From NCBI RefSeq assembly GCF_009017415.1, contig NC_092403.1, positions 1,798,001-1,862,000 of the forward strand: a stretch of 64,000 nt of DNA, given 5' to 3'. A model generated the notes under the pieces. That model ran no database searches, was not told where the DNA came from, and saw nothing but the letters and a program-made list of their open reading frames with translations. This DNA comes from Aspergillus flavus. Its lineage: Eukaryota; Ascomycota; Eurotiomycetes; Eurotiales; Aspergillaceae. The position numbers and the translations under genes are program-made. This document shows positions 14,839-52,164 of this stretch, in pieces (positions within the stretch are counted from its first letter, which is position 1; every line of letters begins with the position of its first letter).

Positions 14839-14843
14839 ATTAT

Positions 14844-15039
14844 TATAATAGTAATTATTTTAGATAACTAGATCCTATATAAATAAGTCACTAATAGACT
14901 ACTAGCTTATATAATATATAAATATATTTATAATAGAATTATATAGAGAATTTTAATTTTTAAGTAATTTATTCTATTATATTAGATAAAGAAATTTCTA
15001 TATAATTTTAAATAATTTTAAGTTTTTTAATACTATATT
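14844..15039 (+). repeat. A1 5' LTR, first part
   Basis: Ungapped match to the unmutated LTR at 31503-31773, with C/G replaced by T/A; for example the first 22 bases correspond one-to-one under RIP. It is interrupted after 15039 by F1 and resumes at 24888. Confidence 0.9.
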
Positions 15040-15182
15040 CATTAAAATCTAGAACTTATTAAACCCTATGTAGCTAGTTATAGTAGATAGCTCTAGTTAG
15101 TTAATAGAAAGCTAGCTAATAAGTTAGATAAAAATCAATAAATATAATAATAATAATAATTAAAAATATTAATATCTTAATA
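15040..15182. repeat. F1 left LTR (heavily RIPed)
   Basis: 143 bp. A hand alignment to the right LTR gives 30 differences. Twenty-seven are transitions, and 25 of those are C-to-T or G-to-A in this copy relative to the other. Confidence 0.9.
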
Positions 15183-15739
15183 TTATAATAATATATCTAT
15201 TATTAATCTAAAGATCTCTTGATCTAGTACTATATTTAATTAATTATTAATATCTATTTATTTATTTTATTTTATTTATTTTATTATTATCTATATTTTT
15301 TTACTATTAATATTATACTATTACTATATTTATATATTAATTAATTAATATATTATTAAACTAGTATACTAAATTACTCTATATTATTTTAGTTTATTAA
15401 TTTTATTAAATAAATATATTCTATTTCTATATTATTATTTAAATATTATTTTTATTTTTCAAATTAAAATATTAATTAATTTTATTTATATTATATTTTT
15501 AAAAGTTTTTAAAAAGAAACTTTATTACTATTTAAAATATTAGAATTTAAAAAATAAATATTAATTTAATTATTTAAATTCTATATTTTATATATATATA
15601 ATTTATTAAAAAGATTAAAATTTTATTTATAATTTTAATTATAATTCTGAAAATATATTATATTTATAAATATAGATTAATTTAATATAGATTAATATTT
15701 ATTTATTAAACTAATAATATTTTTAATAAATTCAGTTAA

Positions 15740-15935
15740 AAATCTATTATTAATATTTTTAATATTATAGTATAATTCTAGATTACTATTCTATTAGCTT
15801 TAACTATTTATTATATAATCTTTAATTATATATCTATCTATTTAATTCTAATTTTATTATAGCTTTTTAAATTATATCTTATTTATCTATTTATATATAG
15901 TATAATCTATAGTCTATTTATATATTAATTTTAAT
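15740..15935 (+). repeat. Family-D repeat, copy 2
   Basis: Direct match to about 18880-19100 and inverted match to 14033-14160. The shared core includes TATATCT..TTTAATTCTAATTTTATTATA. The flanking sequence TTAATAAATTCAGTTAAAAA lies before this copy, while a similar stretch lies after copy 3. The pair may bound an element nested in F1. Confidence 0.65.
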
Positions 15936-18879
15936 TAATTTATTTATTAAAATTATATTTAAACATTATATAGCTTTTTTTTTATAAATTAATATATTTA
16001 TTTAAAAATATTTATTATTTTTTAATTATCTATTAATTTAATTATTTTATAAAAATTTATAAAACTATTATAAAAAAATCTATAATTTTTTTAATGAAAA
16101 TTTTTTTATTAATTAATCTATTATTTATTATTTTATTGATCTTTTCAAATATTTATTTAATTTTAATGAATTTAAAAATAATTATTAGAATTTTTATTAT
16201 TTTATTTTATCAATTTAAAAAAATAATTATAAATTAAAATTAATTTTTAATCTTATAAATATATATAATTTATATAATTAATTATTTAAAAAAATATTAT
16301 ATACTAGATTTTATTCTATTTTTATGATAAAATCTATTAATTATTTAATTATATTAATATTTTAATAATTTTAAAATAAGTTTTGAATAATTTTAATTAT
16401 ATTTAAAATATTTAAAATAATTTATATTAATTTTATTAAAAAAATAAATAATTTAATACTTTTTATTAATTTTTGATATTTTATATTAGAAAATTAAATA
16501 TTTAAAACTATTTTTTTATAATATTAAAATAAAAAATTAATTACAAATTAAAAATAATATTTTTATATTATAATTTATTTATTAATAATTATATATTATT
16601 TATTTATTTATTTAAAATTTAAAAAATTATTATTTAATATATAAAGATTATAATATTTAGAATTTTAAAAAATCTTTTTTTTATAAATAAAAAATAATTT
16701 TTAAATATATATACTTTTAAATAAAATATTTAAAATTTTATTTTATTTATATAAAATATTATTAAATTTTTTTTAAATTTATTATTAGTTTTATTATTAA
16801 TTTTAATATTATAAAATCTATTTTTTAATATTAAATATTCTTTATTTACCATATTTTATTTTTTAAAAAATATTCAATTTATTATTATATTATATTAAAT
16901 TTATATTTATATATAATATAAAATATAATATTTAATATTATTTTCAATAGTATTATTTTTAAATTATTAGTTTTTTATAAAAAAGATTTTTTATATTCTA
17001 TTCTTTATTTTTTAAAATATATTTATTAATAAAAAAAATAAATTTAATTTAAATTATAATTAATTATTATTTATATATATTATTTATTTATTAACTATTA
17101 TTATTTAAAAATCTTTTATTAAAAAAATGAATTATATTAATTTAATAAAATAAAAAGTTTTTTAATTATATATTATTATATTATAAAATTAGTTTAAAAA
17201 AATAATAAATAAAAAATAAAATTTAAAATAAAACTTAAGATTAAAATATTTAAAAATATTTATTAAAATAAAAGAGTTTAATAAATAAAAAATAAAAATA
17301 ATTTAATTATTTATTATATTAATTTAATTTTTTATATATCTATTTTATATATAATTAAAAATAATATTATTATAGAATAAATTAAATTTTAAAGATTTTA
17401 TATAAATATTTTTTTACAATTATATAATTTTATTAAAATTCTTTTTATTAAAAAAAGTAAAAAATTATTATTATATTATTTATATAATTATAAAATTAAA
17501 TGAATTAAAAAAAGATTTTTATTTTTATATTAATTATTAAATTTTAAATATTCTAATAATAAAAATTATTATCTATTATTATTAATTAAAAAACTTTTAA
17601 ATAATTTTAAAAAATAAAATATTTTATTAAAATTAATACTATTTTTATTTTTAATAATATTAGGGTTAAATAAAAATAAAAATAAATAATTATATTTTTA
17701 TTTTTAAAAATAATTTATAATTAAATATAATTATAAGATTTATAAGAAAGAAATTATTTATTATTATTTATTATTTTAAAAATAATATTTTAAATTATAA
17801 GATATTTTATTATTTATTAAAATTATATTTAATTATTATAATCTAGAATATTTTATATTTATTAAAATATTAAATTATTAAAGCTATTAATTTAAAGTTT
17901 TATTTTAATTTTATTTTAAAATTATTTATTATTTTAAAAAATTAAAAATTAAACTAGATTTATTAATTAAAAACTTAATAGATTTTTTTATAAAAAAATT
18001 AAATATTTATTATATTTAATTTATTAATAAAAAATAATTATTTTTATTATTTAATATTTAAAATCTAATTTATAAAGTCTATAAAAAAATAATATAAAAT
18101 AATTTATTTTGAAAATTCTAAATAAAAATTATAATAAATATTTTATAATAATATTATTTGAATATAAAAAATATAAAAAATAAAAAAATATTTATTTTAT
18201 AAGATTATTTCTATATTTTTAATTATAATAGATTTATAAATAATTATTTTAAAAAATTTAAAATCTATAAACTTTTATTTTATAAATATTATTAATTTAT
18301 AATATATTATTATATAAATTATTAAATTTAAAATTATTATATTTATTAAAAATTATTATTTTTTAAAAAAATAAAATAAAAAATTGTATATTTATTATTT
18401 ATATTTAAATATATCTAATAAAATATATTTATAAATTTTATTTTTTTTAATATTTAATTAAAATATTTTATAATTTATTAGTTTATTATTAATATTAAAA
18501 AAATTATATATTTATAAATTTAATATATCTAAAAATTATATAATCTATTTTAAATTATTATATTTAATTATAGATATTAATTTATTATTAAATTTTAAAA
18601 ATCTAATATTTATTACTTTTTATTCTAAAATTTATAATTAAATTAAAATTATTAGTATTTTTTTAAAATAATATTTATTGTTCTATATCTTATATTTATA
18701 AAATAATTAAAATAATTAATTAAAAATATTATTAATTTTTATAAAAAAATACAGAAATTATAAAGATTTATATTTAAAATATATAATAAGAAAGTGTAAT
18801 TATAATTAATTTAATAAAAAATTTATTAGATTATTATAAATTTTTATAAATATTATTTTAATAAATTAGATTTTAGTTT

Positions 18880-19100
18880 TAATAAAATTTTATTATTAAA
18901 AAATAATATTATTATAGTATAAATTTAGAATACTATTTTATTAATTTTAATTGTTTATTATATACTTTTTAATTATATATCTATTTATTTAATTCTAATT
19001 TTATTATAATTTTTTAAGCTATATCTTATTCATTTATCTATATATAGTCTAATCTATAGTCTATCTATATATTAGCTTTAATTAATCTATCTATTTATAC
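18880..19100 (+). repeat. Family-D repeat, copy 3
   Basis: Same orientation as the copy at about 15740-15935, roughly 3.1 kb away, so the two could be LTRs of a small or non-autonomous element. Exact ends and a target duplication could not be fixed. Confidence 0.65.
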
Positions 19101-19777
19101 TTTACTCTAATAATTAATAAATTTAATTAAAAATCTATTATAAAAATATTTATTAATTATTTAAATTAATTTTATTTTTAACTATTATCAGATAGCTAAT
19201 TAGAATTTAATTATTATTTATAAAAAGTATAATATTAAATAGAAATACTAAATTAGATTTTTTTAATATATTATTTTTTTATTTTTATTTTATTAATTTA
19301 AATTAACTTTTAAATTTATAATATAAAATCTATATAAATTAATATATAGTTAATATTAAGAATTAAAATATTTAATAAATAATTTATAATATAAAATTAA
19401 TAATTATTTTAATTAATTTATAAATATAATAAATATTTTAAAATATTAATATTAAAAATCTTAATTTTTTTTAGAATTACACTCTATTAATTATAGATAA
19501 TTATAAAAATAATAATTGATTAAATTAAATAATTATTAATAAATATTAATTTTATTATTTAATATTATTAATATTTATAATAAATTAATAAATTAATAAA
19601 AAATAAAAAATAAAAAGAATTAATTATATTTAATTAAATATATAAAATAATATCTTTATTAAATAAATTAATAATTAAATTTACTATAAAAATATATAAA
19701 TTTTTATTAATAAATTAAAAAATATTATTTATAAGAAAGAATTATAATAAAAATTAATTTATATTTAAATTAATTAA

Positions 19778-20346
19778 TTTTAAAAAATAATCTTTATATA
19801 TTTTATAATAAAAATAAAAATAATTTATATTGATAATAAAGTAATCTAAATTAAAAATATTAAAAATATTAATTAAATTATAAAAATTATTATATAAATA
19901 TCTTAATATATAAATAATATTTTATTAAATTTTTATTTTAAATTTTAATTATTTAAAAAATTATTTTAAAATAGTAATTTTTAGAGATTTTAAAATATTT
20001 TTTTAAAAAATAGCTTTAATATATTTTAAATTAAAATTAACTAATTTAATATATTTTTAATATAAATAATTTTTATATTATATATTATTTTTTAAATAAA
20101 TAATTATAATATAAAAATTATTTATATATTAAGATATTTATATAATAATTTTTATAATTTAATTAATATTTTTAATATTTTTAATTTAGATTACTTTATT
20201 ATCAATATAAATTATTTTTATTTTTATTATAAAATATATAAAGATTACTTTTTAAAAAAATATTTTAAAATCTCTAAAAATTACTATTTTAAAATAATTT
20301 TTTAAATAATTAAAATTTAAAATAAAAATTTAATGAAATATTATTT
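19778..20346. repeat. Cluster of interleaved near-perfect inverted repeats
   Basis: Block P (19778-19918, 141 bp) is repeated inverted at 20117-20257 with a single mismatch. Adjoining block Q (19912-20009, 98 bp) is repeated inverted at 20249-20346 with one internal mismatch. The order is P-Q-spacer-P'-Q', not the P-Q-Q'-P' of a simple palindrome. The spacer has its own inverted pair of about 22 bp (20060-20081 with 20106-20127). Both mismatches are transitions. Confidence 0.85.
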
Positions 20347-23300
20347 TTATTTATATAAAAAAGTATTAATTATTTAATAAGTTTAAAATCTTAAATTAAA
20401 ATTATAAAAAGTTTAATTATAATTTATTAAATTAATTATATATTTATATTTTTTATTTTAATAATAAATATAATTATATTTTATAACTATATTTTAAAAA
20501 TTAAATCTAGAATTAATTTTATTTATAAAATTAATTAATTTAATTAGATTAAATTAAAAAATTAATAGATTATATTTTTTAATAATTTAATTTAATAATT
20601 ATAGATTAATAAATAAATTAAAATTATTTTAATTAAATTTATTAATAATTTATTAAATATTTTATATATATAGTTAAATTAATATATAAAATTTTAAATA
20701 CATAATCTAATTTTAAAAAATTTAATTATTATTAAATTTAATTTACTTAATAAATATAATAAATAAAATTCTTATTAAATATTTTATTTTTAAATAATAT
20801 ATATTTAATATATATTAAGTTTTTAATTTTTAATTAAAAGAATATAATTTAATTTATATAAAAATATATATAAAAAATAAAATATTAAATTTTTAAATAA
20901 TATTTATAAAAAAATATTATTAATTTTAATAAATATTATTTAATTTATAAAAAATTAAAAAATAAATTATTTAAATTAAAAATCCATAAAATAAAAATAA
21001 AAAGTTATATTATAATAAATAATATATTTAATAATTTATGTAATTATAAAAAAATATTTTAGTCTATTAAATATATATTATTTATTTATTTAATTTTTAT
21101 TATTTATAAATTAATTTAAAATAATAAAATTAATAGATAAATAATAAAGAATAATAATAATTAATATATAATAACTAATTTAAGAAATAAAATTAAATTT
21201 ATATTTAATTCTATTATAGAATAAAATTTTAAATTTAATATAAAAATATTCTTATATTATAATTATTAATATTTTTAAATTTCTTTATTAATTTTTTATA
21301 TAATTAAATAAAAATAATTTTATATTATTATTATAAAATTTATTAATTTAATATTATATATTTAATAAATAAGAGATTTTAATTTTCTTAAAATTATAAA
21401 ATTTTATTAAATATATATTAATAATAATATAATTATTATTTTTATTATATTTTTATTATATATTACTTATTTAATTTAAATGTTTAATAAATTAATAAAA
21501 ATAAATATTAAATTAAAATTAAAAAAATTATATATTAATTTTTAAATATATATCTATTTAAATAAATAGTAAATAGTCTAGATTTTTTTTATATTAAATA
21601 ATAATTTTAAACTATATTATTAATTATTTTTTAATTATTTTAAATAATATCTAGATATAATAAATTATTTAAAAGATTTTATTAAATAATATATAATAAA
21701 AGTAAATTTTTTATAAAATTATGAAAGTTTCTATTTTTTAAAAATATATTAATTTAAATATTTTTAAAAAAATTATAAAATAATAATTTATTATATAATC
21801 TATAAATATTAAAATTTTACAATAGTATTTATTAAAATTAATGTAAAATTAATAATATTTTTAAATAAATATTTAACTATTCTTAAATAGTATTATTAAT
21901 TAATTAAATTAAAAATCTTTTATTTTACTTAAATATTATATAAAATTAGATATTTAATAAAAGTTTTTTATTAATTAATTATTATTTATATAGATTGTAT
22001 AATAATAATTAATATAATTAAATAAATAATATTAAATACTATTATAGTTAAATATTTAAATTAATTTTTAATTCATATATTTATATATATATAATAGTTT
22101 TCTTTAAAATTATATTATAAATTAAATAAAATAAATATTATTATTAATCTATAATTCTATTTTTTTATAATAAATATTTTAATTTTAAATAATAAAATAA
22201 TTAATCTTAATATTTTATATATATATTTATTAATTAAATTATTATTAAATTTTAAAAAATTTATTTATAAAATATATAAAAATAAGTATTATATTTGGTT
22301 TATATTAAATATAATTTAATTTAATAGGAAATAATTAATATTAATTATTTTATTTTATATTAAAAATAATAATATTTTATATATAATTAAACAAAATTAA
22401 TTATTAAAAAAATCTTTAATTATCTATTTTTTTTATTATTAACCAAATCTATTTTTAAAATATTATATAATAATAATAATTATTAAAATTTAAATAAATA
22501 TTTAATATATAAATAAATTAACTATATATAAAAAAAACTATTATATATATATATTATAAATTATTTAATTTATTTATTTAATAAAATATATTATTATATA
22601 TTTTATAATTTTTATTAATTTATATAATATTATTAATTCTATTTTATATTATGATAATAGATTTTATAATAAATTTATAAAATAAACTAAATTAATATTA
22701 AATAATATAATATAATTTGTATAGTAATTAATTAAGTTTTTTATCATTTTTAAATAAAATAATTAATATATAAAATAGATTTTTTTTAATTTAAAATATC
22801 TATTTAATGGTTTTTATTATATAATTAAAATAAATTATTAATAAATATAATTAATATTTTAGAAAAATAAAATATTTATTATTAAATATTTATTTAAATA
22901 AAAAAATTATAATATAAAAAATAATTAATAAATATAAATAAATAATATTAATATATAGAATTTAATAAATAAATTTAAAGAAATAATTAATTAAGATTAT
23001 AAATAATTATAGATTATTTTTATAAAATTATTTTATTTTATTTTATTATATCCCTTATTTATTTTATTTTATTATATTTTTTATTATTAATTATTTTATT
23101 TTTATTTTAATTATATATATTTTTTAAAAATATTTTTTATTTTATAATATATTTATAATTTTTTTTATAATTAATAATTATTTTATTATTTTATTATTTA
23201 TTATATTATAATAAAATATTATATTAATTTTAATATAATTAGAATTAAATTAATAAAATAGATAATAAATAAATATTATTTAATAATATAATTAAAAAAT

Positions 23301-23368
23301 ATATATCTATAAATTATTTATTATTAACCAAATACTAGAGTTATATAATTTAAATATATTTATTTTAT

Positions 23369-23476
23369 TTAATAAATCTAATAATATTATGATATATTAA
23401 TTATTATTTAATAATTAATTTTTTAATATTAAATTAAATAATAATTAATATATCATAATATTATTAGATTTATTAA
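23369..23476. repeat. Perfect 44-bp inverted repeat with 20-bp spacer
   Basis: Arms 23369-23412 and 23433-23476 are exact reverse complements around a 20-bp loop. They contain the word TATGATATATTAATTATTAT. It could form a long hairpin or cruciform, or be a miniature-element remnant. Confidence 0.85.
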
Positions 23477-24689
23477 TAAAAAAATTAAATTATTATTTTT
23501 ATAATTTTAATAATAATAGTAATATTTAATTAAATAAATTATTTTAAAATAATTTAATTATTATAATAAAAAATAAATATTATTGATTAATAGTATATTA
23601 TAAATATTATATATTTTTAAAAAAATATTTAATTATATTCTATTTATATCTAATAATTATACATACTAAAGATATTTTAATATAAAATATTTTTAATTTT
23701 AAAATAAATAATTTATTATATAATAGAAATATTATTAAAATAATATTTATTTATTTTTCACTATTAATTATTAATTTATAGCTTAATTTTATTTAATAAT
23801 AGAAATATTTAATTTATAATAATTAAATTATAAAAATAAATTAATATTTATTTATAATATAATTTTATAATTTTTATAAATTTCTATTTTTTTATAATTC
23901 TACTATTTTTTATTTTAATTTTTATTTTATAATTAATCTTTATTATTATTATATAATCTATTAATATATTAATTCTAGATTTTTCTATAATAATATAATT
24001 ATTAATAGTTTTTATTAGTCTAGAATAGTTAATAATATCTTCTACTATTAATTAAATATAGTCTTTAGTATCTATTTTTATTATTACTAATCTATTATTA
24101 ATTAATTCTTTTATCTATTTCTTATACTATATTTACTATCTTTATTTATATTAAATATCTCCAGATTTATATGGACTATTTATTACTATTATTATATTTA
24201 TAAACTATATTAATCTATTATTATTTATATATCTAGTATTAATTAAAAGAATTAGAATAATAATAATAGTACTAAAAATCTACTTTATATAATACTATAA
24301 GATATATTAATTTTTTTAGTTTCTATTAATTTATAAGATTTTATTAACTTAATAGATATTTTAATTATTTTAATATTATTATTAATCTATATAGAAGTAT
24401 ATATCTAGTTTTAATATATCTTTTAATTTCATTAAATTAATTTAATACTTTTATAACTTGGATCTATATATTAATATAATTAGTTATTTTATCTATTAAA
24501 AATATTAAGTTTTATTAAAAGATTACTATATAATATAAAGATTAGTTTTTAAAATATAGCTAGATAAAATAAAATAAGCTTAATAAGCTATATAGAAAGC
24601 TTAGGAAATATAAAAGATTAATATAGAGAACTTAGTAATTAATTAATATTAATATATATCTTTTACTTTATTATTTCTACTTATTTTCT

Positions 24690-24882
24690 TATATTGTCGT
24701 GTTTGCCAATGAGATGTTGTTATTTTCGATTCCGGTTTTTATTGAAACCTGGAACTTCTTGAATCCTGCGTAGCTGGTTATAGTGGGCAGCTCTAGTCAG
24801 CCGATAGGAAGCCAGCTGACAATTTAGATAGAAATCAATGAATATAACAGTAACAATAATCAAATATGTTAATATCTTAATA
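24690..24882. repeat. F1 right end and LTR, lightly mutated
   Basis: 24740-24882 is the right LTR. It and the ~50 bp before it keep ordinary CpG, CpA and TpG content (for example GTCGTGTTTGCCAATGAG), unlike the rest of F1. Confidence 0.85.
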
Positions 24883-24887
24883 ATATT

Positions 24888-24962
24888 TTTAAAGTCTATT
24901 AACTAACTATACTCTATGAATCTATTATTTATGGATAATAATATACTAGTAGAGCGCTTATA
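24888..24962 (+). repeat. A1 5' LTR, second part
   Basis: Completes the A-type LTR after F1. It ends ..GAGCGCTTATA, matching ..GAGCGCTTACA of the unmutated copy. The sequence after it matches the region just inside the A2 5' LTR, confirming this is the 5' LTR of a full element. Confidence 0.85.
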
Positions 24963-26505
24963 ATTTAAATTATTTTTAATTAATAATTTTAAGATAATTA
25001 ATATATAAAATTTAAATATTCTACTACTAATAGATTTCTAGAGAATTAATAATATAGTTATTTAATTATTTATAATTTAAAAAATCTTTTAAAAAATATT
25101 TAATAATTTAATATATTTAAACTTTTAATATTCTAATAGAATTAATTATTAAAAAAAATAAGAATAAAATGTCTAAAAAAGAATTAATATTAGAATATTA
25201 AAGTAAAAAATTAATATTATTATTTGATATAGAATTATAGTATAAATATAAAAAATTACTTTACTATAAATATATTAATTTAATAAAATAATAAAAATAA
25301 AGTTCTATATATTATTAGCTATTTTAATAATAAAGCTAAATAAATATAATATTTAAAGAAAGAAATTTTTAAAAAATTAAATTAGAAAAAATAAAAAGCT
25401 TTTTCTATAAATTTATTAATTTAAATAAACTAGTATTAAAATATTGTATATTATTTTATAAACAAAAAATAAAATAATAGAAATATATATAAATAATATA
25501 TCTAAAATCTAAAAATATAATAAAATTTTTTCAATAATTTTGTTATAGCTTAAATATAGATCTAAATATTTAATTAAAAAATTTAAAAAAAGATTACGAA
25601 GTACTTACATAGTATACTAGCTATAAATTTTAGAGAAATATATATATATAATATAATAATTTAATATTAATTAATCTTTTATTATAAATATAATCTATAT
25701 ATTAATAAAAAATAAAATTCTAGTAGATTTAATAAAAAAAATATTTTTATAAAATAAAATCTTTATTATATATTTTTATAATAATTATTTTTTAACTAGA
25801 TAATTATTTTTTAAAATCTATTAATAGAATAATAGTATATAAATAGTCTATAAATATAAAAAGAATTAATAAAAAAAAAGAAATACTATTTTTAATATAA
25901 TAAGAAAAACTATAAAGCTATAGTATTTTTTATTTTTAATATGGTAAAGTTATAACTATAGAAATTATTTAATATTAATATTAATACTAAACTAATAAAA
26001 AATAGAATTATACTATATAAATAATAAAAATATTATTAAATTTTAAAATTAATAATAATTGTATTTTTTACTAATATTTACTCTAGTATAGAATTACTAT
26101 ATTAAATTTTTATTTTTAACTATTCATATATATATAATATATTAATAGTATCTCTATACTATTTTATTAACCTTTAAAATTTAATTTATTAAATTAGTTC
26201 AAAATATAAATAAATATACTATACTAATTTTAATATCATTTTTAAAATATATTTATAATACTATTAAAAGAAGCTCTGAAGATCTCTATTACAAATTTTG
26301 AATAATTTATAAAGATAATATATTATACTTCTATTATAATAATTATATATTAATTAAATATTAATAATAAATTACTAAAATTACTATTTTAATATAGAAA
26401 ATAGATTTATATTTTTTTAGAAAAATAAATAATTAAGCTTCTAGCTAAAAAAACTATATAATATACTATTAATAAAAAAAGAATTTTTATAATATAGATT
26501 ATTAT
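24963..26505 (+). pseudogene. A1 gag-side region, RIPed relic
   Basis: Collinear over most of its length with the reverse complement of A2 from about 45,067 down to about 43,230. Shared words include AAGTAAAAAATTAAT and TAATAAAATAATAAAAATAA. The position directly after the 5' LTR and before RT implies gag and the start of pol. Every frame is full of stops; no protein motif was recognised. It is broken at 26505 by B1. Confidence 0.7.
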
Positions 26506-27173
26506 TATTGTACCCAGGGCTTTATTATTAAATCTCTAAGATTAGTTAATAGACTATATTTTAAGAGTTATTAATCTAAAATTACTTTTTAATTTCTATT
26601 ATTACTAGACTATTATCGATACTAGACTATTATTATTATAAAAATATAATTAATATAAGACTATTATTAATACTAGACTACTATTATTATAAAGATATAG
26701 CTAATATAAGACTACTATTAATACTAAACTTAAGTTTAAAAAACTAAATCTATTAAATATATATATTTAATAATTAAAAGAGTATAAATAAATTAAAACT
26801 AATTTTACTATTAAAAGTAACTCTATAATAATAATATAGATTAATTATAAAAAATTAAATTAAATATATAAGTAAATATTTTTATATATTTTAAATTATC
26901 TATTTCTATTATAATTTTTCTAAAGTAGATTATAGAATATATCTAATTATAATATATAATATTATATACTTCTAGTATATTTTTTTAAAATAGATATTAA
27001 AATAAATATTATATAATAAAACTATTATTAATATTTATAATTCTTTTTAAATAAGTACTAGATAAATAATTTATTAAATATCTTTTATTTAAAAAATAGC
27101 TATTATTATTTTATTATTATTTTATTTTATATATCTATCTTTAATAAAATATACTAGACAAGAATTTATAATA
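26506..27173. repeat. B1 left LTR
   Basis: 668 bp; aligns with 33806-34472 and 40173-40843. Landmarks shared by all three are GGGCTTTATTATTAA near the start and TCTTTAATAARATG near the end. Confidence 0.88.
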
Positions 27174-38347: not shown

Positions 38348-40172
38348 ACTATTTTTTTAAAAAAATAAACTATTCTAATTTATATTTAAATTGTAAAATA
38401 TTTAATATTTTATTTTAATAGACTATATAATATAAAAATATATTTTATTTAAAATATTTAATAATAAAATTATAAATATCTAATATATTATTTTATAATA
38501 GTTCTAAATAATTAGAATATTAATAAAATATTATTAAAATAGTATAATAGAATTTTTTTTATATAAATTATAATATTTTTTATAGCTATATGTATTTCTT
38601 TAAATTAGTTTAAAAATATAAATATTATAATAAAATTAATTTTATTAATTCAATAAAACTTTATAAATATTTTTTTAAAATATTTTCATTTTTTAAAAAA
38701 CTATTAATATATCTTTATAAAAAAATTAATATATTTATTAATTTTTTATATCTTATTTATATTTTTTTTATTTTATTAAATTCTTTTTTTTTTTTAAAAA
38801 ATATGTATTTTTAATTTAATGAAGATATATTCTAGTTAATTTAATTAATTTAGAGTATATTATTGTAATTTCTTTATAAAGATTTTAATAATTTTCTATT
38901 TTTAATTTTTTAAAAAAACTTTTTTGTATTTTTCTAAAAATTATTTTTATTGTTATTATAATCTCTATTATTTTCTTTAATATCTTTTAATTTTTTTTAA
39001 TAAATCAATAATCTAATTTTAAATATAGTATAATAAACTAATATTAGTAGTTTATAAATATTTTATAAATACTATATTAAGTTAATATTTATTATTATTT
39101 TTATTAATATTAAGAAACTTTTAAAATATAATTTTTAAAAAATTAGATAATTTTATATATAATATATATATTTTAAAAAGTTATATTTTATACTACTAGA
39201 ATCTATATAAATTAAAACTTTATATCTATAGATTTTATTGTTAAATTAAAAGGTTATAAAAATTATAAATAATTTAATTAAGTATATTAAAAAGACTATT
39301 ACTATTTTAATAAATTAAATAAAATCTATTTTATTTAATATTTAATGAAAGTTTAATAATATAGAATCTTTTTTTAAAGATAATCTAGTAAATTAAAAAA
39401 GTTTATAGTAATTTATTTATTTATTTTTTTATTTATTTATTTAAAATCTATTAATAAATACTCTATACTATATTTTTAGACTATTTTTTATTTTTATTTT
39501 TTAATTTAATAAAATTATTTTATTTTTTCATATAAATATTTTTATTAATAATATAAATATAATAGTTTAGAATATTTTTATTAAATCTTAAAATTTTATA
39601 AATAAAAAAAAAGAGTAATACTATTATATTATTTAAAAATATATTAAAATTCTATAAAAAAAAGATTATATTTGTTTATATAATTAAGAGAATATTTTTA
39701 ATATTTTATTAATTTTTTAATAAACTATAATAACTTTAATAATATTTTTAAGATTTTTTTTTTAGTTTCTATAAGTTTTTATAACTTAACTATTTTTTAT
39801 TTAATAAAATATTATAATTTTTTATAGTATATTTAATAAGTAGATATTTCTTCTACTTTTTATTTTTTTAAATTTTCAATAATAATTAATTAAGTTTTAT
39901 TAATTTTTATTTTTATATACTAGTAATATCGTTTTAATAATAATATATAAAAAATAGAATAAATATTATATATATTTTTTAATAATTTTTATAATTATAA
40001 ATAAACTATTATACTTTATATCTAATTTTTTATTTAATTATTATAATTTAATATTTTTTATTAATAATAAAATTTTTTATTTTATATATAATTATATAGC
40101 TTTATAATATTTATTATATTTTTTTATCTACTATTTTATTATTTTCTTTAGATTTTTTTTAATTTAGTCTAG

Positions 40173-40843
40173 TGTTACGCCCGGGGCTTTATTATTAAGT
40201 CTAAGATTAGTTAATAAACTATATTTCGAGGATTACTAATTTAAAGTTATTCTTTGATTTTTATTATTATAGAGATATAATTAATATAAGACTATTATTA
40301 ATACTAGACTATTGTTGTTATAGAAATATAGTTAATAATAAGACTACTGTTAATACTAGACTATTATTATTATAAAGATATAGTCGATATAAAACTACTA
40401 TTAATACTAGATTTAAGTTTAAAAAACTAGATCTATTAAATATATATATTTAATAGTTAAAAGAGTATAAATAAGTTAAGACTAGTTTTACTATTAAAAA
40501 TAATTCTATAGTAATAATATATATTAATTATAAAGAACTAATCTAAATATATAAATAAGTATTTTTATATATTATTATTTATTATATTATTACTATAATT
40601 TCTTATATTAGTAATATATTGTATTTTATTAGTATTATAAGTTTTTTATATTACTAATATATTTAGTTGTATTACTACTATAATATATATAATTTTATTA
40701 TAATAGTTAATATTGATGTTTACGGTCCTTTCTAAATAATTTATTAAGTATCTCTTACTTAAGAATTGGCTCTTATTATTCTATTATTATTCTATTTTAT
40801 ATGTCTGTCTTTAATAAGATGCGCTAGATAAGGATCTATAATA
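40173..40843. mobile_element. Solo B LTR inside A2
   Basis: 671 bp, begins TGTTACGCCCGGGGC and ends GGATCTATAATA. Flanked by a perfect 5-bp duplication TCTAG (40168-40172 and 40844-40848). No B-type internal sequence adjoins it. Its first bases are the least mutated of the three B copies. Confidence 0.92.
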
Positions 40844-42439
40844 TCTAGATATTAACTAGATTTTTTTATTATAATTTTATTAATATATTTAAGATTATTA
40901 ATTTAATAATTTTAAATTTAGAAACTACTAGTTCTATACTTTACTAAACTATAAAAAATAAATATTCTATAAATATATTTTTAATATTATTATAAATAAA
41001 TTTAATAATAATTAATTAATTTATTTAATTATTTTATTAATAGTTTATATATATTTATAAATATATCTTAAGTATTTAGTTTTAATATTCTATTTATCTA
41101 TTTATTTATAAATAAAAAATAATACTTAGATAGTTTTTTATATAAAGATTTTAATAAAATTATATTTAATATATACTAGTAAAAAATAAATTTTTATTAA
41201 TAATTAAATTTTTTAAAAATCTAGTTTTATAAATAATTTTATTTAAGAATAGATTAACTAATTTTTTATAGTTATAATTTTAATTATAAATAGATATTTT
41301 ATAATTTTTTTAATTTAATAATAGTAAATTAATTATAAAGGTCTATTATTAAATCTTACTATAGCTTTTTTAAAATAAAAAAGAATTAATTTATTTTATA
41401 ATAGTTTTGTAAAGACTTTTATTTTTTAATAAATAAAATAGTTTTAAATATAATTTTTAATATCTATATATAGATTATTTTAGTAAAGCTTTTTTTAATT
41501 AATTTAAAAGTCTTTTTTTGATTAAAACAATTTATAAAAAAATTATTATAATATATTTTTAAAATCTTTTATTTAAATATAGAGTATAGAGATATATAGA
41601 TAGTTTTTTTATAATATAATAATTTATTATTAATATGCTATTAGTTTATTAAATTACTATTTATTTTAATAATATTATTTTTATATATATATGGATTTTC
41701 TTTTTATTAAATAGTAATTTATTATAGATCTAGTTAATAAAAATATCTTTTTATTAAATCTTTGAATTATATTTTAAAAAAATATATTATTATTTTATAA
41801 ATAATTTATTTTTAATAATTTTTTATACTATTATTCTAAGAACTAAAAGTTCTAGATTTTTTAAATTTATAATTAAAATTTTTAATAGAATTACTAAAAA
41901 TATTTTAATATAATTTTAATTATTTAATATTATTTATAACTTTTTTTAAAGTATAAATTATTGTCTAATATTTTTTTTATAAATATTTTTATAGTCCTTC
42001 TACTATAAAAATATATTAACTAAATTTAGATATTTAGATTAATATTTTATTTAGAAATTATAAGTTATTAAAAGCTTTATTTATTAAATCTAATATTTAT
42101 TTAGTTTTATTAATTTTTTTAAAATAAAAATATTATATGCTTTTATAATTATTTTATATATAGATTATATCTACTATATTTTTAAAATAATATCTTTATA
42201 TTTTAAAATATTTTATAATAGTAAGTAATTTCTAGTTATAAATAGAGTATTAATTTTCTATTATTATTAATTTTTAAGTAAAAAGTAATTAATTATTAAT
42301 TAAAATATTAATAAAATTTTTTAATTCTATTAATAGATTATAAAAGAATATTTATAATAATAAATTTTAGAATATTTCTAATTAGTTTAATTTATAATAT
42401 AAAATTAAAAAATTATTAAATACTATTTTTAGTTTATTA

Positions 42440-42830
42440 AAAATTTCTATATTTTTTAATAAAAATAAATAGCTCTATGTTTCTTTTTTTTATATCTTTT
42501 TTAATATATTAAATAAAGACTTAGTAATCTAGATATATTAATATATAAAATATTTAAATATTATATAAAGATTTTAGTATCGGCTATTTATTAATAATAT
42601 ATATATATATTAAATTAATATATATACTATTATATTCTATAATAAATTTTAAAAATATTATTTTTTTAATAGAAATTATACTTAAATAATTTAATATATA
42701 GATTTATTTATTTTAAATATAATAATATTTTATTAATATATTATATATATTTCTTTATTATTTATAAATAAATAAAAATATTATTTAAATATATAATATA
42801 ATAATTATTTAAAATTCTTTTTATAATTTT
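42440..42830 (-). pseudogene. A2 reverse-transcriptase relic
   Basis: On the minus strand the YxDD block is still legible as Tyr-Leu-Asn-Asn-Ile at 42777-42791; Asp to Asn is the single G-to-A change RIP would make. The KLxKCxF block follows as a mutated KLFKYNFY. Further downstream the frame carries the KxxNKLK region that precedes RNase H. Numerous TAA/TAG codons stand where Gln or Trp codons are expected. This fixes the A family as Gypsy-like. Confidence 0.78.
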
Positions 42831-45067
42831 ATTAATATATATTTAAAAAATTATTAGTATATTATATAGATTAAATGATATTACTATATATTTAAAATAT
42901 TTATAGTATATTTAAAATACTATTTTCTATTTATTATCTTTTTAAATTTAGATCTATTAATATATATTTTTTAAATTAAATTTAATAAAATACTTTATTT
43001 TTATAAATTAATCTATTAGTTTATTAATATAAAATAATAAATAATAATTTTTTATATTTATAATATTTATTTTTTACTAGTTAATATATAGTTTTAGTAA
43101 ATTATTAGATTTTTAAATAAAAAATATTAGTATTTTAATAGTATTAATAAAATATATAATTTATTTTTATATAAATATTTTATTAAAATACTTTTATAAT
43201 ATTTATAATTTATATTATAAAAGATTATATAGAGATTTATATAGTAAAAGTCTTTTTTCTATTAATAGTATTAAATATATAGTTTTTTTATTTAGAAGTT
43301 TAGTTATTTTTTTTAAAAAAAGATATAAATTTATTTTTTATATTTAAATAGTAGTTTTAATAATCTATTATTAATATTTAATTTATATATAATTATTATA
43401 ATAAAGATATAATATATTATTTTTATAAACTATTTAGAATTTTTAATAAAAATCTTTATACTTTTTTTAATAATATTATATTTTAATTAAAAAATAATAT
43501 TAAAATTAATATACTATATCTATTTATATTCTAAATAATTTAATAATCTAGATTTTAGAGAATAATAATATAGTACTTTATTTTATATTTTTTTATTTAG
43601 TTTTTTTAATTATTTATTTAAGATTTTATAATTAATTTATTATAATATAATACTAAAATACTATTAATATATTATATATATATTAGTAGTTAAAAATAAT
43701 CTTTTAATATAATAATTCTATACTAAAATAAATATTAATAAAAAATAAAATTATTATCTATTTTAGAGTTTAGTAATATCTTTATTATTTATATAATATA
43801 ATTTTATTTTTTTATTAATTTAATATTAGTATTAATACTAGATAATTTTTATAATTATAGCTTTATTATACTAAAAATATAGAATATTATAGGTTTATTT
43901 AAATAATATAAAATTAAAAATTCTAGAAAGTATAGTTTTTATTATTTATAAAAAATATCTTTTTTTAGTATATTATTAATAATTTTAAAATATTTCTAAA
44001 TTTTATAATCTTTTTATTATATTAAAAATAATATTTCTTTTTTTTATTAATTTTTTTTATATTTATAAATTATTTATATACTATTATTTTATTAATAGAC
44101 TTTAAGAAATAATTATTTAATTAAAAAATAGTTACTATAAAAATATATAGTAAAGATTTTATTTTTTTAAAAAATATTTTTTATCTCTATTAAATCTATT
44201 AAAATCTTAATTTTTTTATTAATATATTATTAATTATTTTTTTTACTATTATATAGATTATATTTATAATAAAGAATTAACTAGTATTAAATTACTATAT
44301 TATATAAGTAATCTTGATTTAGATTTTTTAATTAAATATTTAAATCTATATTTAAAGTATAAAAAAATTATTTAAAAAAGTTTACTATATTTTTAAATTA
44401 TAAATATATTATTTATATATATTTCTATTTTTTTATTTTCTATTTATAAAATAATATATAGTATTTTAATATTAATCTATTTTTAAATTAATAAATATAT
44501 AAAGAAAATCTTTTATTTTTTTAATTTAATTTTTTAAAATTTTTTCTTTTTAAATAATATATTTATTTAATTTTATTATTAAAATAGTTAATAGTATATA
44601 AAATTTTATTTTTATTATTTTATTAAATTAATATATTTATAGTAAAATAATTATCTATATCTATAATATAATTCTATATTTTATAAATAATTTTATTTTT
44701 TAAAAAAAATAAATATAAATAGTTTAAAACTATTAAATCTATTATTTACTAAACTAGCTTATATAATTATTTTTAATATTTTAACTATTTATATAATTAT
44801 ATTAAATAATAGTATTAATTTTTTACTTTAGTACTTTAATATTAATTATTTTTAAAGATTTTATATTTATTTTTTTAATAATTAGTTTTATTAAGATATT
44901 AAAGATTTAAATATTCTAGACTATTAAAAGTTCTTTCTAGAAAATTTTTTAAATTATAAATAATTATATAGCTATATTATTAATTATTTAAAAATCTTTT
45001 AAATAATAAGATACTTGAATTTTATATATTAACTATTTTAAAATTATTAGATTTAAATAATTTAAAT

Positions 45068-45335
45068 TATAAATATTTTACTAATATATTATTATCTATA
45101 AATAGTAAATCTATAGAGTATAGTTAATTAATAAACTTTAGAAATATAATATTAAAAAACTTAGAATTTAAAATTATATAGCAATTTCTTTATCTAATAT
45201 AATAGAATAAATTATTTAAAAATTAGAATTCTCTATATAATTCTAATAAAAATATATTTATATATTATATAAGCCAGCGGGCCGCTGGCAGCTTACTTAT
45301 ATAGGATCTAGTTGCCTAAGACAACCGCCGTTATA
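45068..45335 (-). repeat. A2 5' LTR
   Basis: 268 bp. Begins (in plus orientation) TATAAATATTTTACTAATAT, the heavily mutated form of TGTAAGCGCTCTGCCGGCGT, and ends CAACCGCCGTTATA. Confidence 0.88.
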
Positions 45336-47935
45336 GTATTATATTATATTGTTTTTTTAAATAGTTTATATAATAGTATTATAATCTTTATAAATAATTA
45401 TATAAAATATCTATAATATATTATAAACTTTAAATTTTAATATATTTTATATATATTTTAAAACTAATAATATTTTTTAATAATATTTAATTTTACTAAT
45501 ATAAAATATATTTTATTTTTTTTAGTATAATTATATAATAAATTATTTAAATTTTTTAAAAATAGTATTAAATATTATTTTTAATATTAATAATTTATTA
45601 ATATTTACTAGTATTTTAATAAAAAATTAATTTTAAATAAATATTTAATCTAGTTTATTATATTAATAAGTTTTTAAAATTTAGATAATAAATAATCATT
45701 TTTTATTATTAGTTTATGTAATATATAGTAATTAATATATATTTATTATTTTTTATTAAACTTTTTTCTAAAAACTATAAAAAATCTTTATGTAAAAATA
45801 GATAATTATATTAATTTAATTTTAATTATTATTTTAATTTATGTTTTAAGCTCTATAAGTTTTTTTAATAATAAAAAATAAATATTAATATTTATTAATA
45901 TTATATTATTTATATTAATTTTTTAATAAAAATTCTATAAATAGTTTTTTTTTAAAAAATATTATTATATTTGAAAATTATAAATTTTATTTTTATTTTA
46001 ATATCTATTTTTTTTATAATTTAAATAAAAAAACTATATTTTATTTTTTCTATTCTATATTATTTTTATAATTATTTATATTAAAATAAGATTTAATAAT
46101 ATTTTATCTATTTATATATACTATTTAAAATCTATTAATTAAACTTTATAAAATCTACTCTAATTATTTTATAATATTATTTTAAATATTTATTAATTAA
46201 TATATAGATTAATACTCTATAGATAATCTTTTTTAAAAATAAAATTATATTTTTTAAATTTAATAATTTAAATATTAATTTCTTTTAACTATTTTTTAAA
46301 ATTTAAAAATAAAATATAGATACTATTAATCTCTATTTTTTTTATTAAAAGCATTTTTTTGAAAATATTTTAATCTATTTTTATAATTAGAAATCTTTTT
46401 TATTAAAGTTTATATAATAAATATATAACTAGCTCTAAAATCTATTAAAATATATATTATAAATTATATTAAATTATATCTAATTATTTTTTTATAGTAA
46501 AGTATAATATTTTTTAAAATATATAGATATTTATTATAATTATATAATATTTATAAAAAATTTATATCTATAGTTTATAAAAAGACTTTTTTATTTAATT
46601 AATTAATATTTTTTTATTTAATAATTTTAATATTTTTAATATATTTTTCTTTAATTTTAAATAATAGTTTTTAATAAAATATTTTAATTTATTATAATTA
46701 TAATATTTTTAATTCTTTCTATATTTTTTATTATATTTTTTTAAACTATTTTTAAAATAATATTTTAAAAACTTATATATTTATTTTATATATAATATTA
46801 AAATCTATTAAATCTATTTATTAATTATTAATTTTTAATAATTTTCTATTATTTAATTTAAAATAATAAATATTTTTAAAAATAATCTTTTTTTTTATAT
46901 TAAGTAAACCTTTTTACTATAATATTAAAAATATCTAAAAAGTTTATTTTTTTAATTTAATTAATTTATAATTTTTTTATTTATATAATAAAGTAGTAAA
47001 TATAAGTATATTTTATGAATAAAAATAATAAATAAATTATAATATTAATAGAGATATTAATATAGATTTATTTTAATGTCATTTTTTAAAATATCTATTT
47101 TTAAAATAGCTTTAGTAAACTTTTACTTAATAATAATTATTTTTTAAATTTTAAAAACTTTTTTCTATATAAGGATTTATTTATTTTTAAAATATTAATT
47201 AATTTATTATAACTATCTATCTATTATTTTATTCTTAAAATAATTATTATATTTTAAAATTTAATGAAAATTAGAGATTTTTAATAGAAATAATTATTTA
47301 TTTATAATAAAATTTTTTTATCATAAATATTCTAGTTTTTTTATTTTAATTAATAAAATATTACTACTTAATGTATTTATGAGTAGAGAATTTTATAAGA
47401 TAATAGATAAAATAATTTAATTATATATTTATTATATAGCTTTTTTAATAATATACTAAACTATCTTTTCTATAGTATATTTAATAGTAAAATCTACTAT
47501 TTACTATAGTATAGATTTTATTATTTAAATATACTATTCTACTATCCATTTTTTTTATTAAAGCCATTAATATTTTAAATATAGTTTAAATTTTTTATTA
47601 CTAATTACTTTGCTCGCTTATTTAATTCATTATAAAAGATTAAACTATTATAAAGATTATAATAAAAGATTTAGTTATTATAATAGTTACTAGAAGCTTT
47701 AAGATTATTTAAATAGTAGTAATTTTTTAATAGATTTTAATATTAAATTATTTAATTAACAAAATCTATATTTTTAGTTATATATTTTTTTTATAAATAG
47801 TTTAAATAATAATATTACTTAGTCTTTTATTAAAATCTATTATATCTTCTTATAATTATAGAATCTAACTAAGTATTATAGAACTATATAAAATAGAGTT
47901 AGAGCTCTATCTTTAAGTTTAAATATACTACTAGA

Positions 47936-48118
47936 TAAGATTATAAATAATGATATATTATAAAAAGTAGAGAATTATTAATCTTCTATAGATTTAAAAA
48001 GAATCGCTATAATTTGTATATATGTTAAAATTTAGTCTAGTAGCTCTCTAGTAAAGCTATAAGATTCTTTATAAGTAATAGTATCCCTTTATAGTAGTGC
48101 GTTGTAGCGACGATCACA
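47936..48118. repeat. E1 right LTR
   Basis: 183 bp. The last ~90 bp are only lightly mutated, with words such as GTGCGTTGTAGCGACGATCA. Confidence 0.8.
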
Positions 48119-51100
48119 ATATTATATATTTAAATATATTTTTTCATTTATAAATAGAAGAAATATATATGGAATATATTAATAAGATACTATTATATTT
48201 GAAGAAGATAAATCTATATATTAAATTACCTAAGTGTAATTTCTACTAAAAAAATAATATTTTTAAGATTTATTATAGAATATAATAGGATTTATATTAA
48301 TCTAGCATATATATATACTATTAATAAATAGCTAGTACTAGAATATTTTTATAATATTAAAATATTTTTAAAATTTATAGAATATTTTAGATATTTTATA
48401 TATTAATATATCTAGATTATTAAGTCTTTATTTAATATATTAAAGAAAATATAGAAAAAAAGAAAAATAGAATTATTTATTTTTATTAAAAAGATATAAA
48501 AAGTTTTTAATAAATTAAAAATAATATTTAATAGCTTTTTAATTTTATAATATATTAATTTTATATTATAAATCAAATTAATTATAAATATTTTAGAATT
48601 TTATATTATAAATATTTTTTTTATAATCTATTAATAAAATTAAAAAGTTTTATTAGTATTTTAATTAATAATTAATTATTTTTTATTTATAAAAGTGTAT
48701 AAAAATAGAGAATTATTATTTTATTTATAATTAAAAATTATTTATTATTAAAGAATATTTTAAAGTATAAAGATATTATTTTAAAAATATATTATTTATA
48801 ATCTATATATAAAATAATTATAAAAGCTTATAATATTCCTATTTAAAAAAATAATAAAATTAAATAAATATTAGATATAATAAATAAACTTCTAGTAATT
48901 TATAATTTTTAAATAGAATATTAATCTAAATATTTAAATTTAATTGATATATTTTTATAATAGAAAGACTATAAAAATATCTATAAAGAAAATATTAGAT
49001 TATTAACTATATTGTAAAAACTATAAATACTACTAAATAATTAAAAGAATGGTAAAATATTTTTAATAACTAGATTAAAGATTTTAATTATAAACTTAGA
49101 AAATCTAGAACTTTTAGCTCTTAGAATAATAGTATAAAAGATTATTCAAAAAAATATTAAAAAAATATAATACTATAAATTTATTAAAAAAATATATATA
49201 AAGATAATATTACTAAAATAAATAATAATTTGATAAAATAATAGTATATAAATAGTAAACTATTATATTATAAAAAAATTATTTGTATATTTCTATACTC
49301 TATATTTAAATAAAAGATTTTAAAGATATATTATAATAATTGTTTTGTAGATTATTTTAACTAAGAAAATTCATAAAATTAAGTAAAAAAAGTTCTATTA
49401 AAATAATTTATATATAAATATTAAACTATATTTAAAATTATTTTATTTATTAAAAAATAAAGATCTTTAAAAAACTATTATAGAATAAGCTAATTTTCTT
49501 TTCTATTTGAAAAAAATTATAGCGAAATCTAATAATAATTTTCATAATTAATTTATTACTATTAAATTAAAAAAACTTTATATATAATATAATTTCTATA
49601 ATAATAAATTAATATATAAAAATTATAAAATACCTATTTATTATTAAAATTATAATTATAAAAAAATAATTAATATATATTAAATATAATTCTATTATAA
49701 TCTTTATATAGAAAGCTATTTAAATACTAGTTTCTATCTATAAATAAATAAATAAATAAAATATTAAAATTGAAATATCTAAAATATATCTATAAATATA
49801 TATAAATTATTAATAAGAAAATTAAATAAATTAATTATTTGCTAAAAAATTTATTTATAATAATATTAAAAATATATTTATAGAATATTTATTTTTTATC
49901 ATTTAATAAAATATAAAATTAATAATTTCTAAATTTAAAACTATAAAATTAATAATATTAAATATATTAATGAAACTATAGTTAAAAAATTTAACTAGTA
50001 TTTAAATTAAATGAAAAAAAGATTTTAAAAAATAATAAAATAAATAAAAGAATATAATAAATACTATAAAACTATATAATTATATATTAAAAAAGAGTTC
50101 TATTATTAATAAAAAATATTAAATTATTCTAATTAAATAAAAAATTAAATTTAAAATATAATAGTCTATTTATAATTATAAAGATTATTAAAAAATAAAT
50201 ATATTATTTATAATTATTAAAAATATATAGTTATATCTATTTTATTTTTATATATTATTATTATATAGAGATAAAAATTAAAAAAATCTAATTAATTTTT
50301 ATTAATAACTAAAAACATAAAAAATTGAAAAAGTATTTATTTATTAAATATATTATTAAGAATTATAATAAAAAATTGAATAAAAAATAGCTAAATTATA
50401 AAAATTTATAAAAACAAAAAAAGATTTTTAAAAACATTATTAAAATTATTATAATTTATTAAAAGATAAATAAAATATTTTTAATATTTTATTTATTATA
50501 AAAAAATAAAATTTTTTTTTATAAAATGTTAATATATTTTTAAATAGTATAGTAATATTACTCTTTTTCTTTTTTAAAATTTAATAAAAATATTTTGAAT
50601 TACTATATTTATAATATTAATAAAAATATTTATATAAAAAAATAAAATAATTTAAAAATATAATATAAAATATTTACTAGTAAGTTTTAATTAAATAAAT
50701 AGAAAAATAAATACATAAATTATTATAAATTTTTTTAATTTTTTAAATTATTTTTAAAAAAAAGCTCTAGATTACTAAGTTTTTACTAAATATTTATTAA
50801 ATAAAATAAATTATAATTTATATTTTATAATATTAATAAATATAAATAATTTTTATTTGATTTATTAAGATAATTAATAATCTTTTTAATATATTTTATT
50901 AAATTATCTATAGGTTTTATAATTTTTTAATTTAGTAATAAAATTTATAAATAAATAATTTCAGTTTATATAGATTTTAATAATAAGAAATATAGTTTTT
51001 TAAAATGTATATATTATATATAAAGTTATTTAGTATTTTAAAATATATATTCTAAAAGTTTTTTAATATTAATAAAAATATTAATAAAGAAGAATTTAAT

Positions 51101-51889
51101 ATAATATCTATAGAAAATTTATAAACTATTAATACTACTTTATTATATTATATTTAAAATTAAATTATTTATTTACTAAAGAAAAATTAAAAAATATTGA
51201 AAGTAATTTTTTTAAAAAAAAATAATATTAAAAATACTAAAGAAAATTATAGAGATTATAGTAATAATAAAAATAATTTTTAAAAAAATAAAAAAATTCT
51301 TTTGAAAGACTAGAAATAGAAAATTATTAAAATCTTTATAAAGAAATTAAAAGAATATATTTTAAATTATTAAAATTAGCTAAAATATATTTCTATTAAA
51401 TTAAAAAATATCTATTAAAAAAAAGAGTTTAATAAAATAGAAAATGAAAAGAATATAGAAAAAATATAAAAAATTAATAAGTATATTAGCTTTTTTTTTC
51501 TATAAAAATATATTAATAATTATTTAAAAAAATACTTATAAAATTTTACTAAATCAATTAAATCTATTTCATTTTTTAAAAAACGTTTATAACTCTATAA
51601 ATATTAATATATTTAATTATTTTTAAAATAATAGAGATATTATTAATTTATAACTTTAATAATATTTTTTTTTAAGAAAAGTAAATTTACTATACTATTT
51701 ATATTTTTAAAATAATTTAAAAAAATAAACATAGCTATAAAAAATATTATATTTCATAGAATTAAAAATTTTTATAATATTATTCTAAAAATATTTTATT
51801 GATATTTTAATTATTTTTTTAAAATATCAATAAAATAATATATTAGATTTCTATAATTCTATTAAATATTTTTAATAAAATTTATTTTT
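48119..51889 (+). pseudogene. A1 pol relic from the RT YxDD block to the 3' LTR
   Basis: Resumes exactly where 34885 stopped. The YxDD region (about 48127-48140) has lost a base relative to A2, shifting the frame. KLPKCNFY is intact at 48223-48246, a hallmark of Gypsy RT. A connection segment (about 48420-48560) reads KxxNKLK..FNS..IL. At 48584-48595 the codons ATA-AAT-ATT-TTA are what ACA-GAT-GCT-TCA, the start of the RNase H TDAS motif, becomes under RIP. RNase H, integrase and any spacer must fill the remainder but are not legible. No frame is open. Confidence 0.78.
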
Positions 51890-52159
51890 ATATTATATAA
51901 TTTATTAAAATAACTAGATTCTATATAAATAAACTACTAGTAGACTATTAATTTATATAATATATAAATATATTTATATTAAAATTATATAAAGAATTCT
52001 AATTTTTAAATAATTTATTCTATTATATTAAATAGAGAAATTTCTATATAATTTTAAATAATCTTAAGTTTTCTAATACTATTTTTTAAAATCTATTAAT
52101 TAAATATACTCTATAGATCTATTATCTATAGATAATAGTACACTGGCAGAGCGCTTATA
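51890..52159 (+). repeat. A1 3' LTR
   Basis: 270 bp, matches the solo LTR 31503-31773 nearly without gaps with systematic C/G to T/A replacement. The last ~20 bp keep CTGGCAGAGCGCTTATA. Confidence 0.9.
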
Positions 52160-52164
52160 ATTAT

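What the first reader, a model, noticed from the sequence alone, without database searches (positions are those of the whole stretch)
14839..52164. A four-level retrotransposon stack can be resolved inside nearly pure A+T DNA
Five target-site duplications and four LTR pairs assign almost 37 kb to A1, F1, B1, E1, A2 and two solo LTRs. Order of events follows: A1 first; F1, B1 and E1 into A1; a further A copy into B1 and A2 into E1; B into A2. The A family was therefore active before and after both B1 and E1 arrived, and the B family before or around and again after A2. This is a relative chronology of transposition in DNA usually dismissed as unreadable.
Basis: seen in the sequence. Interest (0 to 1): 0.9.

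Follow-up and report, generated by a model that had tools for sequence, protein, structure and literature searches.

The report
Nested mutated retrotransposons in fungal centromere

Summary
In alignments that tolerate C/T and G/A changes, A1 (14844-52159) lies in four pieces that map in order onto A2, at about four times the reversed-sequence control. Seven insertions are resolved: A1, F1, B1, a solo A LTR (As), E1, A2 and a solo B LTR (Bs). Target duplications: five exact 5-bp, one exact 4-bp (E1), one 5-bp with two differences (A2). Other copies in the genome give empty sites for As and A2. The order A1 > {F1; B1 > As; E1 > A2 > Bs} follows. B1 and A2 are not ordered by nesting; a transversion clock on the LTR pairs agrees with the nesting but is weak. 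The window holds the left half of a 94-99 kb AT-rich block whose coordinates match the chromosome 8 centromere of Aspergillus flavus NRRL 3357 in a 2023 paper (PMC9910759); that paper lists B1 internal DNA as two Gypsy 4 fragments and part of A2 as Gypsy 2. Nested, RIP-mutated LTR elements in fungi are a known kind. New here: A1, E1, F1, the joining of listed fragments into one stack, and the chronology.

The parts
14839..14843 (.). A1 target-site duplication, left copy (ATTAT)
14844..15039 (+). A1 5' LTR, first part (up to the F1 insertion)
15040..24882 (+). F1, an LTR element of family F inside the A1 5' LTR; LTRs 15040-15182 and 24740-24882; TSD ATATT at 15035-15039 and 24883-24887
24883..24962 (+). 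A1 5' LTR, second part (begins with the right copy of the F1 duplication)
24963..26505 (+). A1 internal region, piece 2
26506..34472 (+). B1 (Gypsy 4); LTRs 26506-27176 and about 33806-34472; TSD ATTAT at 26501-26505 and 34473-34477
31503..31773 (+). As: solo LTR of family A inside B1, 56% G+C; TSD AATTA at 31498-31502 and 31774-31778
   Evidence: empty sites in other B copies
34473..34885 (+). A1 internal region, piece 3
34886..48118 (+). E1, family E; LTRs 34886-35068 and 47936-48118; 4-bp TSD ATAT at 34882-34885 and 48119-48122
38078..45335 (-). A2 (Gypsy 2) inside E1; LTRs 38078-38348 and 45067-45335; TSD ATATA (38073-38077) / GTATT (45336-45340)
40173..40843 (+). Bs: solo LTR of family B inside A2; TSD TCTAG at 40168-40172 and 40844-40848
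48119..51888 (+). A1 internal region, piece 4
51889..52159 (+). A1 3' LTR (its first 20 or so bases align poorly to the 5' LTR)
52160..52164 (.). A1 target-site duplication, right copy (ATTAT)

Best explanation
A1, an LTR retrotransposon of the Gypsy 2 family, inserted into the AT-rich centromeric block of chromosome 8 of an A. flavus genome. F1 (into the A1 5' LTR), B1 (Gypsy 4) and E1 then inserted into A1; a further A element inserted into B1 and A2 into E1; a B element inserted into A2. The A copy in B1 and the B copy in A2 shrank to solo LTRs. Repeat-induced C-to-T mutation drove the full-length copies to 6-9% G+C while leaving the purine/pyrimidine pattern, which is why the stack can still be read. 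Shown: pieces, junctions, duplications, empty sites, order, excess of transitions. Inferred: that RIP in the strict (premeiotic, enzyme-driven) sense made the transitions, that the solo LTRs arose by LTR-LTR recombination, and that the block works as the centromere (taken from the published annotation).
For: Colinear A1/A2 pieces against reversed controls. Junctions against the uninterrupted relative for F1, B1, E1 and Bs. TSDs and their chance rate. Empty site of As: of 16 non-window hits to its left flank with E at or below 5e-49, 13 continue into the right flank with the 5-base overlap that a duplication predicts (8 read directly from the end coordinates, 5 after extending an end by 1-4 bases); 3 do not resolve. 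Empty site of A2 in other E copies: 5 of 7 fetched align across it; trimming 5 bases scores best or tied best of 0-8 in 4 of these 5 and second best in L108. Family-A solo LTRs elsewhere carry exact 5-bp duplications (L010, L012/L030, L029; L011 does not), an E solo LTR (L073) a 4-bp one. Five LTR pairs: 234 transitions, 23 transversions; the E1 and F1 pairs, which align without any gap, give 59 and 7. Published Gypsy 2 and Gypsy 4 fragment coordinates fall on these elements.
Against: A2's duplication differs at two of five positions. E1's is only 4 bp in AT-rich DNA. LTR-pair transversions (A1 6/265, F1 3/143, E1 4/183, B1 8/666, A2 2/267) are in the order that the nesting demands, but the counts are so small that the posterior of the full order is 0.28 against 0.10 by chance. 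The alignment scoring favours transitions over transversions, which raises the ratio where gaps were allowed. No coding domain was found in the stack: RVT_1 and RVT_2 profiles over the genome gave 3 and 2 places, none in this window. Two of the seven fetched E copies (L112, L113) do not show the A2 empty site clearly.
Confidence: 0.95

Rival explanations
1. The similarities are compositional: in DNA of 4-10% G+C, long alignments and short flanking matches arise by chance, and the stack is over-read.
For: Unrelated stretches of this DNA do align over about 1 kb with scores near 300-380 and 12-15% transversions; a 4- or 5-bp match is not rare.
Against: True alignments score about four times the reversed control with 2-4% transversions; the As and A2 junctions appear as empty sites in independent copies; genome-wide LTR searches give the same termini.
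Confidence: 0.01
2. The interruptions of A1 arose by rearrangement or assembly error inside a repeat cluster, not by successive insertions.
For: The families are repeated at other centromeres, where misassembly is easy; no reads were seen here.
Against: Each interruption is a whole element or LTR bounded by its own termini and flanked by a duplication of the target, and relatives hold the uninterrupted site. Published coordinates on chromosome 8 agree, though they probably rest on the same assembly.
Confidence: 0.03
3. The C-to-T load is not RIP but long drift under AT-biased mutation or cytosine-methylation decay.
For: RIP was not tested by experiment; the two DNA-methylase loci found were not assigned to a type. 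The DNA left of A1 (14200-14838), not shown to be a repeat, is also at 7.1% G+C. One short family-A solo LTR inside a centromere cluster (L029) is mutated to 20% G+C.
Against: The 271-bp solo LTR As keeps 56% G+C inside a 7% G+C element, as expected if short repeats escape RIP. Transitions exceed transversions about tenfold. Surviving C is 74-91% CpT in the full-length elements and the flanking AT DNA.
Confidence: 0.1

Closest known systems
[quoted passage not shown] flavus centromeres (PMC9910759; abstract, sections 21 and 22, and passages seen)
   Same: Same locus: NRRL 3357 chromosome 8 Gypsy 4 fragments 1825191-1829507 and 1829775-1831639 are B1 internal DNA on either side of As; Gypsy 2 1838843-1843069 is A2 to the right of Bs. 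AT-rich centromeres of about 100 kb are described.
   Different: The word 'nested' does not occur in its main text. The fragments are listed apart, and no A1 piece is listed for chromosome 8 in its Table 6, which covers Gypsy 2 and Gypsy 4 only. No insertion order is given in the parts seen; figures and supplements were not seen.
47-kb nested LTR cluster of Mycosphaerella graminicola (PMC4522978; passages seen)
   Same: An LTR element as base with a 5-bp duplication and further elements nested in it, in a genome with RIP-like mutation.
   Different: The passages seen give no centromeric place and no composition near 5% G+C; element ages there come from LTR divergence, which the authors say RIP may inflate.
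crapaud of Podospora anserina (PMC10787394; passages seen)
   Same: A much higher share of copies without RIP among solo/fragment LTRs than among full copies, as with As here.
   Different: Concerns subfamily evolution, not a resolved stack.
Neurospora crassa centromeres (recalled; no paper read)
   Same: AT-rich, RIP-degraded nested retrotransposons.
   Different: Other families; not compared here.

Membership tests
LTR retrotransposon | Paired direct terminal repeats | tested here: met
   A1, F1, B1, E1, A2
LTR retrotransposon | TG...CA termini (TA...TA after C-to-T change) and 4-6 bp target duplications | tested here: met
   A2's duplication is imperfect, and the first base of the left F1 LTR is C, not T
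LTR retrotransposon | Reverse transcriptase and integrase | tested here: inconclusive
   RVT_1 and RVT_2 profiles find nothing in the window, as expected at this mutation load; integrase not searched
Gypsy 2 (A) and Gypsy 4 (B) of A. flavus | Agreement with published annotation | tested here: met
   Table 6 of PMC9910759 against contig coordinates on chromosomes 1, 4 and 8; sequences were not compared with Repbase
Repeat-induced point mutation | Excess of transitions in repeated DNA | tested here: met
   234 transitions to 23 transversions in five LTR pairs; 59 to 7 in the two gap-free pairs
Repeat-induced point mutation | Premeiotic action by a RID-type enzyme | not testable with these tools
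   two DNA-methylase loci in the genome, type not assigned
Regional fungal centromere | A long AT-rich, repeat-filled block at one internal place on each chromosome | tested here: met
   repeat hits of the four families concentrate at one internal place on each of eight contigs; B also has a few arm sites (such as C2 0.34 Mb and C8 2.91 Mb). Contig 8 block about 94-99 kb (108,717 bp were assayed in PMC9910759)
Regional fungal centromere | CenH3 chromatin | not testable with these tools
   no chromatin data

The most novel reading that the evidence does not exclude
The A. flavus centromeres grew mainly by retrotransposons of a few families inserting again and again into each other. Because RIP leaves the purine/pyrimidine pattern intact, all eight centromeres could be read as an ordered insertion record with a RIP-blind transversion clock, and some late steps (A2, Bs, As) may be polymorphic between strains.
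Probability: 0.35. Interest if true: 0.5.

Novelty: new member of a known kind. Interest (0 to 1): 0.3.

Why it matters
It shows that DNA of 3-9% G+C can keep enough information to order transposition events, and it turns separately listed fragments of one centromere into an ordered sequence of insertions. Extended to the other centromeres and to other strains, it would test how fungal centromeres grow and whether insertion order agrees with strain history.

Tried and rejected
A first self-comparison with short words timed out. A 28-base-word search found only the best pieces; purine/pyrimidine recoding found the rest, but many of its weaker rows (about 73-77% identity) look compositional, so the joins used later were checked against reversed sequence or against an uninterrupted relative.

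A1 sitting inside a further E element was suggested by an alignment running past the A1 end and rejected: flank-to-E1 scores (284-362) equal the controls (276-380).

A 5-bp duplication ATATT for E1 was my first reading; an E solo LTR elsewhere (L073) shows that the LTR starts one base earlier, so the duplication is 4 bp.

High G+C of As as a sign of youth was rejected: 271 bp lies below the length on which RIP is reported to act (about 400 bp, PMC4522978 passage), and the other family-A LTRs with 50% G+C or more (L010, L011, and L012/L030, which are one place) have no partner LTR in the hit list; L010 and L012/L030 have exact duplications, L011 does not. Against a simple rule: L029, a family-A solo LTR with an exact duplication, is mutated (20% G+C).

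The species could not be named (best named hit 64% over 86% of the query; the closest hit, 88%, is unnamed). (98% to A. minisclerotigenes; the listed A. flavus protein 89% over 77% of the query) and the coordinate match point to an A. flavus genome, most likely NRRL 3357.

Papers: searches gave listings, none; judged by titles and abstract starts, they showed nothing but PMC9910759 that bears directly on this locus. That is a statement about those searches of an open-access library. Passages of PMC9970103 were seen and not used.

Full report
What was claimed.

Where it is. The window is G000 contig 8, 1798001-1862000, of a 37.7-Mb, 8-contig genome. G+C falls from about 46% to below 15% at about 14.1 kb. 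Of twenty 300-base samples to the right, the nine up to 1906300 have 2-17% and the eleven from 1911001 on have 38-48%, so the AT-rich block is about 94-99 kb and the stack is in its left half. A host protein beside it is 98% identical to one of Aspergillus minisclerotigenes; the listed A. flavus protein is 89% identical over 77% of the query. PMC9910759 (abstract, sections 21-22 and passages seen) lists for A. flavus NRRL 3357 chromosome 8 Gypsy 4 fragments at 1825191-1829507 and 1829775-1831639 and a Gypsy 2 fragment at 1838843-1843069. In window numbers these are B1 internal DNA on either side of As, and A2 to the right of Bs. Entries for chromosomes 1 and 4 also lie between or beside my LTR hits. 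The genome is therefore most likely NRRL 3357 and the block its chromosome 8 centromere (108,717 bp assayed in that paper); family A is Gypsy 2 and family B Gypsy 4. I did not compare with Repbase sequences.

Is the stack real? RIP changes C to T and G to A, so purine/pyrimidine patterns survive. With such scoring, A1's pieces (14844-15051, 24871-26505, 34460-34900, 48109-52159; edges run a few bases into the inserts) map in order to A2 positions 1-204, 175-2107, 2082-2555 and 2527-7258, at about four times the reversed control and with 2.0-4.3% transversions. One sub-stretch tested apart, 49603-50363, where A2 holds Bs, aligned poorly (9.2%). Against A2, which lacks F1, B1 and E1, the junctions of all three fall where the duplications lie; against A1, which lacks it, so does Bs. 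Duplications: A1 ATTAT, F1 ATATT, B1 ATTAT, As AATTA, Bs TCTAG exact; E1 ATAT exact at 4 bp; A2 ATATA/GTATT. A random exact 5-mer match has frequency 0.016.

Independent copies. Other B elements are uninterrupted at the As site. Of 16 non-window hits to the left flank with E at or below 5e-49, 13 continue into the right flank with the 5-base overlap that a duplication predicts: 8 read directly from the end coordinates, 5 after extending an end by 1-4 bases. Three (C7:2596919, C4:2795543, C7:2648464) do not resolve. Of seven E copies fetched at the A2 site, five align across it; with the right flank trimmed by 0-8 bases, removal of 5 is best or tied best in four (L107, L109, L110, L111) and second best in L108; L112 and L113 do not align well enough to judge. 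Family-A solo LTRs elsewhere show exact 5-bp duplications (L010, L012/L030, L029; L011 does not) and an E solo LTR a 4-bp one (L073).

Order. A1 first; F1, B1, E1 into A1 (mutual order unknown); As into B1; A2 into E1; Bs into A2. Family A thus inserted before and after B1 and E1. Whether B1 precedes A2 is not decided. As an independent check I counted transversions, which RIP does not make, between the two LTRs of each element: A1 6/265, F1 3/143, E1 4/183, B1 8/666, A2 2/267. The four orderings that the nesting requires hold in the point estimates, but the posterior probability of the full order is only 0.28 against 0.10 by chance. This supports, and does not prove.

Mutation. The five LTR pairs differ by 234 transitions and 23 transversions; the E1 and F1 pairs, which align without gaps, by 59 and 7. 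G+C is 8.6% in A1, 5.7% in F1, 7.3% in B1, 7.6% in E1, 8.2% in A2, 16.7% in Bs and 55.9% in As; the poorest 1 kb has 2.8% and the poorest 5 kb 3.9%, both within F1. Surviving C is 74-91% CpT in the full-length elements and the flanking AT DNA, 69% in Bs and 23% in As. Two DNA-methylase loci are present. As escaped although B1 around it did not; repeats below about 400 bp are reported to escape RIP (passage), and solo copies of crapaud are more often free of it (passage). But L029, also a family-A solo LTR, is at 20% G+C, so escape is not a rule.

Place in the genome. Of the 42 strong family-A LTR hits (E at or below 1.5e-41; 51 listed in all), 31 lie in one internal cluster each on seven contigs and 11 near chromosome ends (clusters defined from the hits themselves, and only 40 of 75 candidates were scored). 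Family E: 16 of 17 hits in clusters; family F: 8 of 9. Family B lies in clusters, near chromosome ends and at a few arm sites. Contig 1 has its cluster at 4.52-4.62 Mb from B, E and F.

Verdict. The observation and its interpretation stand, with small corrections. It is a new, well resolved member of a known kind.

Noticed in passing
window 15752-15965, 18899-19112 and about 14053-14199 (inverted): A repeat of about 150-240 bp, twice in the same direction inside F1 and once inverted at the edge of the AT-rich block; it may be an LTR pair nested in F1, but I saw no duplication beside it.
   Followed up: partly
window 57676-57996 and 62756-63089: A direct repeat (score 312, reversed control 41.5) outside A1, perhaps the LTRs or another repeated part of a further element.
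   Followed up: partly
window 16551-21550: 5 kb with 3.9% G+C, inside F1; the poorest 1 kb (from 20551) has 2.8%.
   Followed up: no
window 31503-31773 and loci L010, L011, L012: The only family-A LTRs with G+C of 50% or more among those examined have no partner LTR in the hit list, while LTRs next to internal sequence are heavily mutated; L029 is a mutated solo LTR.
   Followed up: partly
G000 C4:902086 (L079): A little-mutated F LTR with adjoining sequence in a chromosome arm; only short frames there.
   Followed up: partly
G000 C3:2697370-2698041: An RVT_2 match with seven stops, inside the contig 3 cluster; its family was not determined.
   Followed up: no
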